A DNA stretch of 64,000 nt from Halobacillus halophilus DSM 2266 (GTDB taxonomy: Bacteria; Bacillota; Bacilli; Bacillales; Halobacillaceae): positions 1,984,001 through 2,048,000 of the forward strand of contig NC_017668.1 of NCBI RefSeq assembly GCF_000284515.1, in the 5' to 3' direction. The position numbers and the translations under genes are program-made. Shown in pieces: positions 32,356 through 62,516 of the stretch. The notes beneath the pieces were generated by a model, which saw nothing but the letters and a program-made list of their open reading frames with translations, did no database searches and was not told the origin of the DNA. Numbering within the stretch: position 1 is the first letter of the stretch; every line of letters begins with the position of its first letter.

Positions 32356-32391
32356 AAACGCAACGTGAGAAAACTCACTTTGCGTTTTTTT
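32356..32391 (+). terminator. Rho-independent terminator
   Basis: Stem AAACGCAACGTGAG / CTCACTTTGCGTTT (one mismatch), loop AAAA, T7. Confidence 0.87.
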
Positions 32392-32448
32392 CATTACAAA
32401 GCGAGACGAACTTGTCCGATAAAGAAAATAGCGGAGGTTTTACATACG

Positions 32449-33213
32449 ATGACAATCAGGACGATTGCGCAAATCAAAAAAGAATTAGCAGACGAAAGTG
32501 TAGAGGAAGAATATCTGGATTTACTGCGTAGCGATAATCGCAAAGGTGTACAAAAACTACTTGAACAATATGATAGGAGACAGGATCAGAAACGAGAATA
32601 TAAGCATCAATTTGAGCAGATGAAGTCTTTTGAGTACTCCTGCAGAGAGAAAGGGAGCCATATAATAGCAGGAATTGATGAAGCTGGGCGTGGACCGCTG
32701 GCGGGTCCTGTGGTTGCAGCTGCCGTTATCCTGCCAGAGGATTATTATTTGGAGGGACTTTATGACTCCAAAAAAATTCCGCTTGCTAAACGTGAAGAGT
32801 TTTTTCAGAGTTTAAAAGCCCATGCAGATTGTGGGGTCGGAATTGTATCTAACGAAGAAATTGATCAGCATAATATCTATCAAGCAACAAAATTGGCTAT
32901 GAAAAGAGCGGTTATGGATCTTACTCAGGTACCTGAACATCTCCTCATTGATGCGATGTATTTAGAGGAATCAGAAGTTCCACAGACTTATTTAGTTAAA
33001 GGCGATCAGCGTAGTGTATCGATTGCAGCAGCAAGTATTATCGCAAAAGTAACGCGAGACCGGATTATGTCTGAGTGGCACGACAACTATCCTATGTACC
33101 ATTTTCGGTCCAACCAGGGGTATGGCACTAAAGAACATTTAGAAGCTTTAAAAACATACGGAGTGTCTCCGCTGCATCGAAAAAGCTTCGCCCCTGTCAA
33201 AGAGAACAGCTGA
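32449..33213 (+). CDS. rnhB: Ribonuclease HII
   Basis: A 254-residue enzyme that nicks RNA in RNA–DNA hybrids, including single ribonucleotides. The catalytic signature GIDEAGRGPLAGPV is at about 75–88; other acidic residues are in YDSKKI and LIDAMY, with the KGDQRSVSIAAASIIAKVTRD block typical of type 2. Start ATG 32449 behind GCGGAGG, 11 bases away; a longer frame upstream overlaps the terminator. About 70 N-terminal residues form a helical substrate-handling extension. Confidence 0.96.
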   Translation: MTIRTIAQIKKELADESVEEEYLDLLRSDNRKGVQKLLEQYDRRQDQKREYKHQFEQMKSFEYSCREKGSHIIAGIDEAGRGPLAGPVVAAAVILPEDYYLEGLYDSKKIPLAKREEFFQSLKAHADCGVGIVSNEEIDQHNIYQATKLAMKRAVMDLTQVPEHLLIDAMYLEESEVPQTYLVKGDQRSVSIAAASIIAKVTRDRIMSEWHDNYPMYHFRSNQGYGTKEHLEALKTYGVSPLHRKSFAPVKENS

Positions 33214-33234: not shown

Positions 33235-35157
33235 ATGAATTTGATTTCAAGCCTTAGCAAATTAGTTCAGCAACAAGAGGTGCGGGCTCTCCCTAAGACA
33301 GGGCAGGTTATAAACGGAAAAATTCTTGAACTTCTTCCACAGAATCGTGCGGTTGTGCAACTGGGTTCTCAACAAGTGAAAGCCCAATTGGAAGCTTCTC
33401 TATCAAAAGGAAAATCTTATTTATTTCAGGTTGGCTCAACAGATCAAAAAATTCAGTTGAAAGTAATTACCCAGTTAGGTGAGAGCCAAAGGGATTCGAC
33501 GGTAAAGCAACTTTTGGACGAGCTTGGAATTAAACCTACGAAAGAAAACCGTCTGCTTACTTCTCAGCTTATAAAGAAAAGTGTACCTTTCCAAGGGTCT
33601 GATCTTAAACAGGCGGCTGCTTTACATCAACGGGCAGAGGACATAAAAGCTGCCCGTGAGATTTTAGTACAGATGCTTCAAAAACAGCTTCCGATTAAAC
33701 CTTCCGTTTATAATGCTTTACATACTAAAAGGATGGATAGTGTAACTCAAACCATGAAGCAAGTGCATATAGAGGCTTCTAAAAGTAAAACAGCTGCGGA
33801 CAGGGCGGTTATGTCTCTTTTAGCATCTTTAAAGGGAGAGGGAGCTTCTGTGTCCTTGAGGGAGTCATCCGTGGTAAAACTGATGACAGAAGTAAATATT
33901 AACAGCCAGAACTCTTTTCAATTATTTAAGAAAGCCGGGATTCTTGATTCCAAGGCCTCTTACACCTCTTTTCAAAATACCTGGACAGAATGGGCAGGAG
34001 CTCATAGTAAAGGTAACGAAAATCCCTCTTCTACTTATTTAGCTAGCCTATCTAAAAAGTCAGCACCTCCATTTCCGATGGCTATGGAAAAACTGGCAGG
34101 CAGGCTGAAGCAGCTTTTTCATCAGCAGCTTCCGCTGAAAGCCCCTGAACAACAGTCTTTGCATCGTGTTATGAATCAAGTTGAAAAAGTCTTAGCCAAG
34201 GAAATACCATCTGGAAATGATTCTCTCCGTAGTAAGCATAATACGTTTGGGACCAACCAGTCCGTATCTGAAGATTTTCAATTTTTGAAAGAACGCGAAG
34301 TCTTAACAAAAATAAGCAGCCTTTACACCGATGAAAAAAATCAAAAACTTTTACAAGATTTCCTGCGTGCGGCCCCCATCTTGTTAACGGAAGGTGGATC
34401 ATCGGAGAAGCAGGTCATTAGGGAAGGTTTGTCTGTTCTAAAGAAATGGCAATCCACGCAGCTGCCTCCGATTCTTCGCCAAACCCTGACTGAATGGATA
34501 GGAAGATCGGCTGCTGAACTTTCCCTGTCAGAGAAAGAAGCTATTTTTGTAAAAATGAAAACCATGCTTGACCTGACAGGCCTGCAAGAAGAGTCTAATG
34601 TAAAACCTGCGTCAGCCCAGGAAAAAGCAATCACTCAAGAAAGTTCTCTGAAGACCTTGTTGCTCTCCAGTCTTCAGGATGCAAGCAGCATCATTCGTCC
34701 GGAAACAGCTAAAAAAATGATTCAGATGTTAAATGGAATGCAACTGACGGCCCAGCAGGAAACGAACCAGAGTCTGCAGATGTCGCTACAGTTTCCAGGA
34801 AACATAATCGGCTCAGAAAATGATGTTTATTTAGATATGGCAGGTAGAAAAACGAAGGAAGGTAACATTGATCCTGATTATTGTCACATTATGTTCTTTT
34901 TAGACTTAAATAACTTTAAAGAAACAATAATTAACTTAAATATAGTTTCCAGATGGGTAAGAGTAACTGTATTTAATCATGATTCATTAATAGAATTACC
35001 AATGGAAACGCATAAAGCTTCCCTTAAAATCGGGCTTGAGAACATGGGGTATGAATTGACTTCCCTTAATATTAAGGAAATGAACCATGCGGTAGACACG
35101 TCCGGTAAAGACAACGCTCTACCTGAATACAAGGAAGGAATTGATCTTCGAATATGA
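33235..35157 (+). CDS. ylqG: YlqG, FliK-like large protein
   Basis: A 640-residue Gln/Ser/Lys-rich protein of unknown function. The N-terminus (about 1–80) looks beta-rich (GQVINGKILELL, RAVVQLGSQQV). A long helical middle follows, and a C-terminal beta/alpha domain (about 510–620) resembles the hook-length control domain of FliK, with CHIMFFLDLNNFKETIINLNI followed by VRVTVF. Its stop overlaps ylqH (ATGA), so the two are translationally coupled. A YlqG–YlqH pair occupies this same locus in B. subtilis as recalled. Start ATG 33235 after AAGGAGGG. The FliK comparison is inference from pattern. Confidence 0.8.
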   Translation: MNLISSLSKLVQQQEVRALPKTGQVINGKILELLPQNRAVVQLGSQQVKAQLEASLSKGKSYLFQVGSTDQKIQLKVITQLGESQRDSTVKQLLDELGIKPTKENRLLTSQLIKKSVPFQGSDLKQAAALHQRAEDIKAAREILVQMLQKQLPIKPSVYNALHTKRMDSVTQTMKQVHIEASKSKTAADRAVMSLLASLKGEGASVSLRESSVVKLMTEVNINSQNSFQLFKKAGILDSKASYTSFQNTWTEWAGAHSKGNENPSSTYLASLSKKSAPPFPMAMEKLAGRLKQLFHQQLPLKAPEQQSLHRVMNQVEKVLAKEIPSGNDSLRSKHNTFGTNQSVSEDFQFLKEREVLTKISSLYTDEKNQKLLQDFLRAAPILLTEGGSSEKQVIREGLSVLKKWQSTQLPPILRQTLTEWIGRSAAELSLSEKEAIFVKMKTMLDLTGLQEESNVKPASAQEKAITQESSLKTLLLSSLQDASSIIRPETAKKMIQMLNGMQLTAQQETNQSLQMSLQFPGNIIGSENDVYLDMAGRKTKEGNIDPDYCHIMFFLDLNNFKETIINLNIVSRWVRVTVFNHDSLIELPMETHKASLKIGLENMGYELTSLNIKEMNHAVDTSGKDNALPEYKEGIDLRI

Positions 35158-35423
35158 AAGATAAGCGGAAAGAAGCGATTGCTCTCCGTTATCAATTTGA
35201 TAACGAAGCGGCTCCAAAGGTTGTAGCCAAAGGTGCAGGCTATGTAGCAGAAAATATAATGGAGAAAGCGAAAGACAATCAAGTATCCATTCAGGAAGAC
35301 TCAACGTTAGTTGAACTGCTATCAGAATTAAATATTAATGAACAGATTCCAGAAGAATTGTATCACGTCGTAGCAGAGGTTTTCGCTTTTATCTATAAAG
35401 CAGATAAAGATTATACTGCATGA
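35154..35423 (+). CDS. ylqH: YlqH, FlhB cytoplasmic-domain-like protein
   Basis: An 89-residue protein resembling only the C-terminal part of the export switch FlhB/YscU. AIALRYQFDNEAAPKVVAKG matches AIAVKYSEDQGDAPYIVAKG of the FlhB encoded at 61431 in this window, and the ending VVAEVFAFIYKAD matches AVAEILAYVYQLE. The NPTH self-cleavage motif and membrane part of FlhB are absent; the protein begins just after where NPTH would be. Overlaps ylqG by four bases. Likely acts with YlqG; function unknown. Confidence 0.9.
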   Translation: MKDKRKEAIALRYQFDNEAAPKVVAKGAGYVAENIMEKAKDNQVSIQEDSTLVELLSELNINEQIPEELYHVVAEVFAFIYKADKDYTA

Positions 35424-52394: not shown

Positions 52395-52425
52395 TGGCGT
52401 TTGATCTTGAAAGGAGGTGAAAACA

Positions 52426-53928
52426 ATGAATCTTGTCCATCAGATGTTTAGCACAGCACGTTCCCAGCCACTGGTTCTATTTAACTCCCCAATAGAAGGT
52501 AAGAATCCCAAGGAATCATTTCAAGATTTATTATCCACCCTGCAAGAGAATAGGGAGAGTTTAAATGTTCCGGGCAAGGCAGATATAGGTCCAATTGATG
52601 AAATGGTTCAGAAGCTTCGCCGCCAATTGAATGAACTATTTACAGAACTTAAGTTCTATCAAAAAGAAACTGATCAAGGAAGTGGACAGGGGTTAAAAGA
52701 ACTAGAACAGCTGGCTGAGCTCCAAATTCAGTTTGAAGACGATGCGGTTATGCCTTCAGATTTGGACATATTAACGGGGTTAGAGTCCGCTCTTAAAATG
52801 CTTCAAGGAGTAATTAAAGCGGAGGAAACAGAAGGGGGTAATTCGAAAGAAGAGACTAGCCTAGTGAAAGACCCAAAGGTTTCAGATCTTTTTCAAACCA
52901 TAAATGAAACCATACACTTGGTTCAGAATGTACTTAAAGGCACTGAGGAGCAAAAAAAGAAAATGTCGAATGACACCCACTTTATTACCCTCCCTATTTC
53001 TTCCAACGTGACACAATTGGAAAAAAGCCAATTATTAAATAACTTTGAGCAGAAAGAGATTGATCTCCAAAAATTATGGGTTAAGTTTCAGCAAAACATT
53101 CATAGTCTAGAAAACAACAATAGAGATGCTCATTCCAAAGTCAATGGTTATTCAACCAAAGTATTAGTTATTAAAGATGTCATTCAATCGATCTCCCAAA
53201 TATCCAATCAAGTACCTGAGGGAAAATGGACATCCATGCTGAGCAAGCTATCAGAGCAAGGAACTGAATTTGAAAATAAGCTGTTTAGAGGTATATGGAA
53301 TACCTATCAGAATAGACAAACTGTTCCGTCTGGTTATCAAAGGTTGTCGCCTATTAATGGAAAGGAAATGGGGAAGTGGATTTCGCAGTATATTGAGAAG
53401 CATACGGACAATTCTCGAACCTCGGCATCTTCTCTTCAAACCATGCCGATGTCAAAAGTAGAGCAACATGTGATTCAGATCCATCAGAATCAGCCGTCTT
53501 CTTCTATCCCAAACCAGTTTATGAAAGAGCTGGAACGTATTCTTCAATCCAGCCGGTGGTTTACCAGCAAGCCGGGCAGTATGGAAATGCAGTTAAAACT
53601 TAAGCCTCTCAATCTTGGGGAGATGACGGTGAAACTTGCGCAGATAAATGGAGAACTAACCGTGAAGATTATTGCTAGCAGTCAAGCAGCGAAAGAAATG
53701 CTGGAAAGTAACATGGGTCAGTTGCGTCACATGTTCTCCCCTCAGCAGGTCGTAGTTGAAAAAAATGAGGGATTATCTGACCAGCCGTCATTCTATTCTT
53801 TCGATGAGGATCAAGCTGGGCACGAAGAACAAAAAGAAAAACAGTCAAATCAGATAGATTCGGATAGTGAAGAACAATCTGAGGATGGAGAGTCTTTTTA
53901 CGATATTTTAATGAATGAGAAAGTTTAG
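52426..53928 (+). CDS. fliK: Flagellar hook-length control protein FliK
   Basis: A 500-residue molecular ruler that switches export from hook to filament type. The N-terminal two-thirds is low-complexity and helical. The C-terminal hook-control domain (about 375–450) reads MEMQLKLKPLNLGEMTVKLAQINGELTVKI, close to the family consensus. Start ATG 52426, eight bases after AAAGGAGG; GTG 52417 is in frame but lies three bases from that site. Confidence 0.94.
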   Translation: MNLVHQMFSTARSQPLVLFNSPIEGKNPKESFQDLLSTLQENRESLNVPGKADIGPIDEMVQKLRRQLNELFTELKFYQKETDQGSGQGLKELEQLAELQIQFEDDAVMPSDLDILTGLESALKMLQGVIKAEETEGGNSKEETSLVKDPKVSDLFQTINETIHLVQNVLKGTEEQKKKMSNDTHFITLPISSNVTQLEKSQLLNNFEQKEIDLQKLWVKFQQNIHSLENNNRDAHSKVNGYSTKVLVIKDVIQSISQISNQVPEGKWTSMLSKLSEQGTEFENKLFRGIWNTYQNRQTVPSGYQRLSPINGKEMGKWISQYIEKHTDNSRTSASSLQTMPMSKVEQHVIQIHQNQPSSSIPNQFMKELERILQSSRWFTSKPGSMEMQLKLKPLNLGEMTVKLAQINGELTVKIIASSQAAKEMLESNMGQLRHMFSPQQVVVEKNEGLSDQPSFYSFDEDQAGHEEQKEKQSNQIDSDSEEQSEDGESFYDILMNEKV

Positions 53929-61430: not shown

Positions 61431-62516
61431 ATGAATTACTTACATTTAGACCTGCAGTTCTTTGCAGCAGACGAAAAAACAGAAAAAGCTACGCCTAAGA
61501 AGAGACAGGATAGTCGAAATAAAGGACAGGTTCCCAAAAGCCAGGATGTAAATACCGGCTTTCTTCTATTAATGGTATTTGGCGTCCTGTTTTTACTGGG
61601 GAGCCAAATGAAGTCAACTATGACAGGAATGTATGAACATGCGTTTCAAGAATATATTCACTGGGATGTAACTGAAATGCAAGTTCATACGATTTTTGTC
61701 GAAATGACCTGGGAAATTAGTAAAGTCCTTGCTCCTATAATGGGGGTGGCTATTGTAGCTGGTATAGCATCTAATCTTTTGCAGGTGGGCATTATGTTCA
61801 CCGGTGAGCCATTAAAAGTGGATTTAAAAAAGCTGGATCCTATCCAGGGAGCAAAAAAAATATTTTCAGCACGGGCTCTCGTCGAGCTTGTAAAGTCCTT
61901 GCTGAAAATTACCATGGTAGGCTCTATAACATTTGCGATCATCTGGGTTAATAAAGATGAAATGATGCTGATGTCCCAGAAATCCGTACAGGCAGCCCTC
62001 GCTTTTTTTGGTAACACTACTATTTTAATGGGGCTTGCTTCAGCACTCGCCCTGCTTATTCTCTCCGTTATCGATTATACATATCAGCGCTACGATCATG
62101 AGAAAAATATACGAATGTCTAAAAAAGACATTAAAGATGAACATAAGAACATGGAAGGGGATCCACAGATTAAAGCAAAAATTAAAGAGAAGCAGCGGCA
62201 AATGTCTGCTTCCCGCATGATGAGTGAAGTCCCTGATGCGGATGTGGTAATTACGAACCCCACCCATTATGCAATTGCTGTAAAGTACAGTGAGGATCAG
62301 GGAGATGCGCCTTATATTGTCGCTAAAGGGGTTGATTTTATCGCTTTAAAGATTAAAGAAGTAGCTAAAGCAAACAACGTAGTTACCGTTGAGAACCGTT
62401 CTTTGGCAAGAGCTTTGTATAAAAACACTGAGATCGATCAGCCCATTGATGAGCAATTCTATAAAGCAGTAGCAGAGATTCTTGCTTACGTATATCAATT
62501 GGAGAAAAAAATCTAA
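61431..62516 (+). CDS. flhB: Flagellar export switch protein FlhB
   Basis: A 361-residue substrate-specificity switch. N-terminal KTEKATPKKRQDSRNKGQVPKSQDV, four membrane helices (about 30–215), and a cytoplasmic domain with the autocleavage motif NPTHYAIAVKY near 274–284. FliK (52426) would trigger the switch. The small YlqH protein at 35154 resembles the part after NPTH. Confidence 0.97.
   Translation: MNYLHLDLQFFAADEKTEKATPKKRQDSRNKGQVPKSQDVNTGFLLLMVFGVLFLLGSQMKSTMTGMYEHAFQEYIHWDVTEMQVHTIFVEMTWEISKVLAPIMGVAIVAGIASNLLQVGIMFTGEPLKVDLKKLDPIQGAKKIFSARALVELVKSLLKITMVGSITFAIIWVNKDEMMLMSQKSVQAALAFFGNTTILMGLASALALLILSVIDYTYQRYDHEKNIRMSKKDIKDEHKNMEGDPQIKAKIKEKQRQMSASRMMSEVPDADVVITNPTHYAIAVKYSEDQGDAPYIVAKGVDFIALKIKEVAKANNVVTVENRSLARALYKNTEIDQPIDEQFYKAVAEILAYVYQLEKKI

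What the first reader, a model, noticed from the sequence alone, without database searches (positions are those of the whole stretch)
33235..35423. YlqG–YlqH: a second FliK/FlhB-tail-like pair outside the flagellar operon
Seen: YlqH (89 aa) aligns by eye with the segment after NPTH of the window's own FlhB, including APxxVAKG and a shared C-terminus, yet lacks NPTH and any membrane part. Its partner YlqG (640 aa), coupled by an ATGA overlap, is built like a ruler protein with a FliK-like C-terminal domain. Inference: the pair could modulate the flagellar switch (a decoy FlhB tail plus an alternative FliK), or be an old type III export module put to a new use.
Basis: partly seen in the sequence, partly recalled or inferred. 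Interest (0 to 1): 0.6.

Follow-up and report, generated by a model that had tools for sequence, protein, structure and literature searches.

The report
FliK–FlhB-tail gene pair for flagella
Next to a housekeeping gene, this salt-loving Bacillus relative carries a small two-gene unit made of a second copy of the "switch tail" of the flagellar protein exporter and a dedicated partner that looks like the switch trigger, and the unit is kept only by bacteria that have flagella, so it probably tunes how they change from building the hook to building the filament.

Summary
YlqH (89 aa) is a free-standing paralogue of FlhB's cleaved C-terminal domain: 39% identity to the window's own FlhB, no NPTH, no membrane part, one separate branch (SH-aLRT 99). 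YlqG has no Pfam hit itself, but its family belongs to the FliK/T3S4 fold. 23 of 68 relatives match Flg_hook directly, profile–profile E is 1.7e-6, and the predicted C-domain matches the PscP and FliK switch domains. YlqG's middle is predicted folded, so "ruler" is not supported. The pair is very conserved: 80/80 Bacillaceae loci share the ATGA overlap, and all 20 loci from other classes have a FliK-like gene directly upstream. It tracks flagella: 134/148 FlhB-positive versus 0/52 FlhB-negative genomes. New here: YlqG ends in an almost invariant φ-D-x-R/K-φ pentapeptide (139/141), equivalent to the last five residues of E. coli FliK (VDIFA), which trigger the switch in Salmonella. YlqH lacks FlhB's β1 strand; in a read-through fusion model YlqG's tail becomes a strand (low confidence). 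Best reading: a FlhX-type accessory module of the flagellar specificity switch in which YlqG's T3S4 domain and tail hold or eject YlqH, an exchangeable FlhB tail. The exact role is untested.

The parts
33235..35157 (+). ylqG, 640-aa FliK/T3S4-family partner protein
   Evidence: ORF; family match by relatives, profiles and fold
33304..33474 (+). YlqG residues 24-80: N-terminal beta-barrel of OB type
   Evidence: AF2 model pLDDT above 90 in most blocks; Foldseek top hits are IF1A-type OB folds, E 0.02-0.06
33490..34677 (+). YlqG residues 86-481: helical array of variable length, predicted folded
   Evidence: AF2; family length 232-1064 aa
34699..35079 (+). YlqG residues 489-615: T3S4 (FliK-type switch) domain
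   Evidence: AF2; Foldseek to PscP 5cuk prob 1.00 and FliK-C 2rrl prob 0.99; hhalign E 1.7e-6
35137..35154 (+). YlqG residues 635-640, tail G-I-D-L-R-I: conserved phi-D-x-R/K-phi end, D637 invariant
   Evidence: E. coli FliK ends S-G-V-D-I-F-A
35154..35157 (+). ATGA stop/start overlap of ylqG and ylqH
   Evidence: conserved in 80/80 Bacillaceae loci
35154..35423 (+). ylqH, 89-aa free-standing FlhB C-terminal-domain paralogue (FlhX-type)
61431..62516 (+). flhB of the window (comparison); domain after NPTH is about 62259-62513
52417..53928 (+). canonical fliK of the window (comparison); ends ...FYDILMNEKV, no phi-D tail
32365..33213 (+). rnhB, immediate upstream gene (21-bp gap, GGAGGG before ylqG)
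   Evidence: syntenic in 78 of 80 loci

Best explanation
ylqGH encodes an accessory module of the flagellar type III specificity switch. YlqH is a free-standing, exchangeable copy of the FlhB domain that follows NPTH (FlhB_CCD; FlhX-type). YlqG is its dedicated FliK-family partner: an N-terminal OB-like barrel, a folded helical middle, a T3S4 switch domain and a disordered tail ending in phi-D-x-R/K-phi. I propose that YlqG binds YlqH through the T3S4 domain and the tail, the tail standing in for the beta1 strand that YlqH lacks. In this way it keeps the spare tail soluble, or delivers it to or removes it from FlhB, biasing the exporter towards early (hook) or late (filament) mode. Shown here: homologies, fixed pairing, tail conservation, co-occurrence with flagella. 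Inferred: physical binding, strand completion, action on FlhB. Unknown: which direction it pushes the switch.
For: YlqH homology to FlhB_CCD. It keeps A285, P286 and A340 (E. coli numbering; equivalent to A286, P287, A341 of the Salmonella early-substrate pocket), with L343 mostly F, and forms one separate branch, SH-aLRT 99. YlqG as T3S4: Pfam Flg_hook matches the gene next to ylqH over the cut-off in several genomes and 23 of 68 aligned relatives at E<=0.01; hhalign E 1.7e-6 against 0.02-0.07 for reversed controls, and the YlqG HMM finds E. coli FliK at E 1.4e-7; Foldseek 5cuk and 2rrl. Pairing: 80/80, 39/40, 20/20 in other classes. Tail: 139/141, E. coli FliK ends GVDIFA. Flagella: 134/148 vs 0/52, Fisher 2e-35 (not corrected for ancestry); YlqG profile in 116 genomes, all with YlqH, none in the 14 FlhB-only genomes. 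Mechanism precedent: PMC13344023 (last five FliK residues proposed to act on FlhB_CCD, which is lost from the cell). In the fusion model the tail is a strand that is coil in YlqG alone.
Against: YlqG-YlqH covariation does not exceed controls with RnhB or SucC. The tail profile places FlhB's beta1 only at rank 2-7 of about 355 windows. 14 flagellated genomes lack the pair, so it is not essential. No sigma-D-like box was found with the one pattern tried and ylqG follows rnhB closely, so expression need not be flagellar. I found no motility phenotype for ylqG or ylqH in the library.
Confidence: 0.6

Rival explanations
1. Spare part without a switch role: YlqH merely replaces a lost FlhB_CCD to keep export going, and YlqG is a chaperone for it.
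For: H. pylori HP1575 is reported by title as a 'spare part' that permits export when FlhB_CC is deleted (Wand 2006, cited in PMC3040844; full text not held). Pocket residues are kept in YlqH.
Against: Does not explain why the partner carries a FliK-type T3S4 domain plus the trigger-like tail in essentially every locus.
Confidence: 0.2
2. Decoy or competitor: YlqH titrates FliK or early substrates, and YlqG is an alternative FliK that is secreted and sets hook length.
For: Same folds as the real pair. In 15 same-order genomes examined canonical FliK lacks D at -4, while 13/13 YlqG have it.
Against: YlqG's middle is predicted folded, unlike an extended ruler. No export signal was tested. Published B. 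subtilis work assigns hook control to FliK (own knowledge).
Confidence: 0.12
3. The pair has left the flagellar system and serves another cytoplasmic process near rnhB.
For: Location in the rnhB neighbourhood in 78/80 loci; no flagellar promoter seen.
Against: Complete absence from 52 FlhB-negative genomes in the same class, with loss in several families that otherwise keep the pair.
Confidence: 0.05

Closest known systems
FlhX / YlqH family (TIGR00789 flhB_rel; H. pylori HP1575 'spare part')
   Same: Short protein equal to FlhB after NPTH, no membrane part; YlqH matches TIGR00789 over its length
   Different: The published H. pylori work is known to me by title only, and that title names no FliK-type partner. 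Here the partner gene is fixed next to it and overlaps it.
FlhB C-terminal cytoplasmic domain (PF01312; 3b0z, 3b1s)
   Same: Homologous; APxxVAKG and AE..A..Y kept
   Different: No NPTH, no beta1 strand, no membrane part, one-residue deletion at Y322, G instead of the usual Bacilli D at 294
FliK / T3S4 switch proteins (PF02120; 2rrl, PscP 5cuk)
   Same: C-terminal alpha/beta switch fold and C-terminal pentapeptide (GVDIFA in E. coli, GVDxRI in YlqG)
   Different: YlqG has an OB-like N-domain and a folded helical middle; sequence similarity is below Pfam's threshold in this species
flhX-fliK locus noted in Nitratiruptor (PMC9321776)
   Same: An FlhX gene beside a fliK in another phylum
   Different: Only mentioned in passing there; no tail motif or mechanism given in the passages I read

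Membership tests
FlhX / TIGR00789 (free FlhB_CCD) | Homology to FlhB after NPTH over the whole length | tested here: met
   107 bits, below the strict NCBI cut-off of 117, as for nearly all Bacilli
FlhX / TIGR00789 (free FlhB_CCD) | No NPTH, no membrane domain | tested here: met
   sequence
FlhX / TIGR00789 (free FlhB_CCD) | Separate lineage from FlhB | tested here: met
   one branch, SH-aLRT 99; only 95 columns
FlhB | Membrane domain plus autocleaving NPTH | tested here: not met
   absent in YlqH
FliK / Flg_hook (PF02120) | Pfam match above cut-off for this protein | tested here: not met
   no hit
FliK / Flg_hook (PF02120) | T3S4 fold and remote sequence homology of the family | tested here: met
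FliK / Flg_hook (PF02120) | C-terminal switch pentapeptide | tested here: met
   139/141; E. coli FliK GVDIFA
FliK / Flg_hook (PF02120) | Extended N-terminal ruler | tested here: not met
   predicted folded helices; prediction only
FliK / Flg_hook (PF02120) | Secreted through the flagellar exporter and sets hook length | not testable with these tools
   needs experiment

The most novel reading that the evidence does not exclude
The YlqG (and FliK) C-terminal pentapeptide phi-D-phi-x-phi is a donor strand that mimics FlhB's own beta1 (A-D-V-V-I, just before NPTH). FliK would eject FlhB_CCD by strand exchange, and YlqG would complete the beta1-less YlqH in trans, so that ylqG|ylqH is a two-gene version of the FlhB cleavage junction and YlqH can re-dock to reset the exporter.
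Probability: 0.3. Interest if true: 0.85.

Novelty: new variant of a known kind. Interest (0 to 1): 0.55.

Why it matters
How FliK's last residues flip FlhB is a long-open question. A 2026 study (PMC13344023) proposes that they eject the cleaved FlhB domain. A widespread natural pair consisting of a free FlhB domain and a FliK-type protein with the same tail gives a small soluble system in which the contact can be measured, and it assigns a flagellar role to two genes that are unnamed in Bacillus and usually left out of flagellar models.

Tried and rejected
Pfam, NCBIfam and PDB sequence searches with YlqG or its full profile found no relative with a solved structure. Global-mode hhalign gave no useful alignment and was replaced by local mode. 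Mutual-information coupling between YlqG and YlqH looked promising (z 7-8) but controls with RnhB and SucC reached 6.4-7.6, so it is inconclusive. The idea that canonical FliK lost its tail wherever YlqG exists was dropped: several Bacilli with YlqG keep a phi-D-Y-x-V end on FliK, and G183, which lost ylqGH, has the same FliK end as its congener G053. Scoring FlhB with the tail profile was weak. Three fusion alignments were discarded because MAFFT misplaced YlqG ends. A sigma-D box search was empty. The H. pylori HP1575 paper is not held.

Full report
What is there. The window lies in a 4.17-Mb Halobacillus-like genome (closest YlqH relatives, 91% identical, are Halobacillus alkaliphilus and H. 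halophilus). ylqG (33235-35157) and ylqH (35154-35423) overlap by ATGA and follow rnhB with a 21-bp gap and a GGAGGG site; sucC comes next. The fla/che operon, with fliK at 52417 and flhB at 61431, starts about 10 kb downstream. The genome has exactly two PF01312 matches, FlhB and YlqH.

YlqH. It aligns with FlhB only after NPTH: 39% identity to the window's FlhB, E 3e-14, and FlhB structures are the best PDB sequence matches (3b0z, E 2e-10). Across 120 YlqH and 21 FlhB sequences the A-P..VA.G core and the final helix are kept. The residues equivalent to the early-substrate pocket (Salmonella A286, P287, A341, L344, named in PMC13344023) are A, P, A and mostly F. PTH is gone and one residue (Y322) is deleted in all 120. 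A tree puts all sampled YlqH on one side of one branch, SH-aLRT 99 (only 95 columns), so it is an old paralogue and not a repeated truncation.

YlqG. The protein itself has no family match. Four lines place the family with FliK. (i) In other Bacilli, Pfam's Flg_hook matches the gene directly before ylqH above its cut-off, e.g. E 4.6e-11 in G106. (ii) 23 of 68 aligned YlqG match Flg_hook on their own at E<=0.01. (iii) Profile–profile comparison gives E 1.7e-6, probability 90, against 0.02-0.07 for reversed controls, and the YlqG HMM finds E. coli FliK at 1.4e-7. (iv) AlphaFold2 on the window protein (mean pLDDT 89, pTM 0.86) shows a barrel (24-80), a helical array (86-481), an alpha/beta domain (489-615) and a disordered tail (620-640). 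Foldseek matches include the PscP switch domain 5cuk (probability 1.00, rmsd 2.9) and the FliK-C NMR structure 2rrl (0.99), although their E-values (0.27 and 0.97) are weak, probably because the query is long. The barrel resembles IF1A-type OB folds. The confident helical middle argues against an extended ruler, although its length varies widely (232-1064 aa for whole proteins).

The pair as a unit. ylqG lies directly before ylqH with the ATGA overlap in 80 of 80 named Bacillaceae loci, in 39 of 40 more distant Bacilli loci an ylqG-like gene is directly upstream, and a FliK-like gene precedes it in all 20 loci from other classes of the phylum (YlqG-HMM E from 8e-19 up to non-significant for the most divergent). 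YlqG ends in phi-D-x-[R/K]-phi in 139 of 141 sequences; D637 is invariant in the 68-row alignment. E. coli FliK ends SGVDIFA. In Salmonella the last five residues of FliK are proposed to act on the cleaved FlhB domain, whose loss from the cell accompanies the switch (PMC13344023). The window's own FliK ends MNEKV and lacks the motif. None of the 15 same-order FliK examined has D at -4, whereas 13 of 13 YlqG do. Elsewhere in Bacilli many FliK keep a phi-D-Y-x-V end.

Link to flagella. Of 200 genomes of the class, 148 have FlhB; 134 of these have a second match of YlqH type, and none of the 52 FlhB-negative genomes has one (Fisher 2e-35, not corrected for ancestry). The YlqG profile is found in 116 genomes, all among the YlqH carriers and in none of the 14 that have FlhB but no YlqH. 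The pair is therefore lost with flagella, but some flagellated lineages do without it (e.g. G183).

How it may work. FlhB's NPTH site lies between strands beta1 and beta2 of a four-stranded sheet (PMC3640470). YlqH starts just before beta2, so it has no room for beta1 (sequence). In an AlphaFold2 model of a stop-read-through fusion of YlqG's C-domain and YlqH (locus L173; pLDDT 80, pTM 0.61) the tail D-I-R-V becomes a strand, although it is coil in YlqG alone. Its pLDDT is under 50 and I could not inspect the pairing. The YlqH part of that model matches FlhB/EscU/YscU domains (probability 1.0). I infer, at about 30%, that the tail supplies the missing strand; covariation tests neither support nor exclude this. 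Combined with the reported 'spare part' role of H. pylori HP1575 (title only), the likeliest function is control of an exchangeable FlhB tail by a dedicated FliK-type partner.

Comparison. The FlhX family is known and counted in flagellar surveys (PMC10746217, PMC9321776), and a 'flhX-fliK' locus is mentioned for Nitratiruptor. I found no paper in the library that describes YlqG as a T3S4 protein, the fixed pairing with overlap, or the shared pentapeptide. I therefore call it a new variant of a known kind.

Noticed in passing
L176, L177, L172, L178, L174 (genomes G066, G094, G018, G132, G138): Several Bacilli carry a second, distant ylqGH-like pair with a very large YlqG (711-1064 aa in the loci read; open frames up to 1939 aa in G094) and a longer YlqH, yet a single FlhB in most of them; its role is unknown.
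   Followed up: partly
window:53883-53925 (end of FliK) and L206-L217: FliK proteins of this order share another C-terminal end, roughly F-x(3-4)-L-[LM]-x-x-x-V, instead of the phi-D tail.
   Followed up: no
G183 (L186, L227) versus G053: A genome of the same genus as G053 keeps FlhB and FliK but has lost both ylqG and ylqH: a natural knock-out for comparison.
   Followed up: partly
alignment A2 (YlqG): 12 of 68 YlqG relatives weakly match PF19753 (DUF6240, best E 3e-4), so that family of unknown function may be FliK-related too.
   Followed up: no
FlhB residue 294 region (E. coli numbering): FlhB of Bacilli has K-G-x-D here (19/21) while YlqH has G at the D position in 119/120: a clear paralogue-specific residue.
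   Followed up: no
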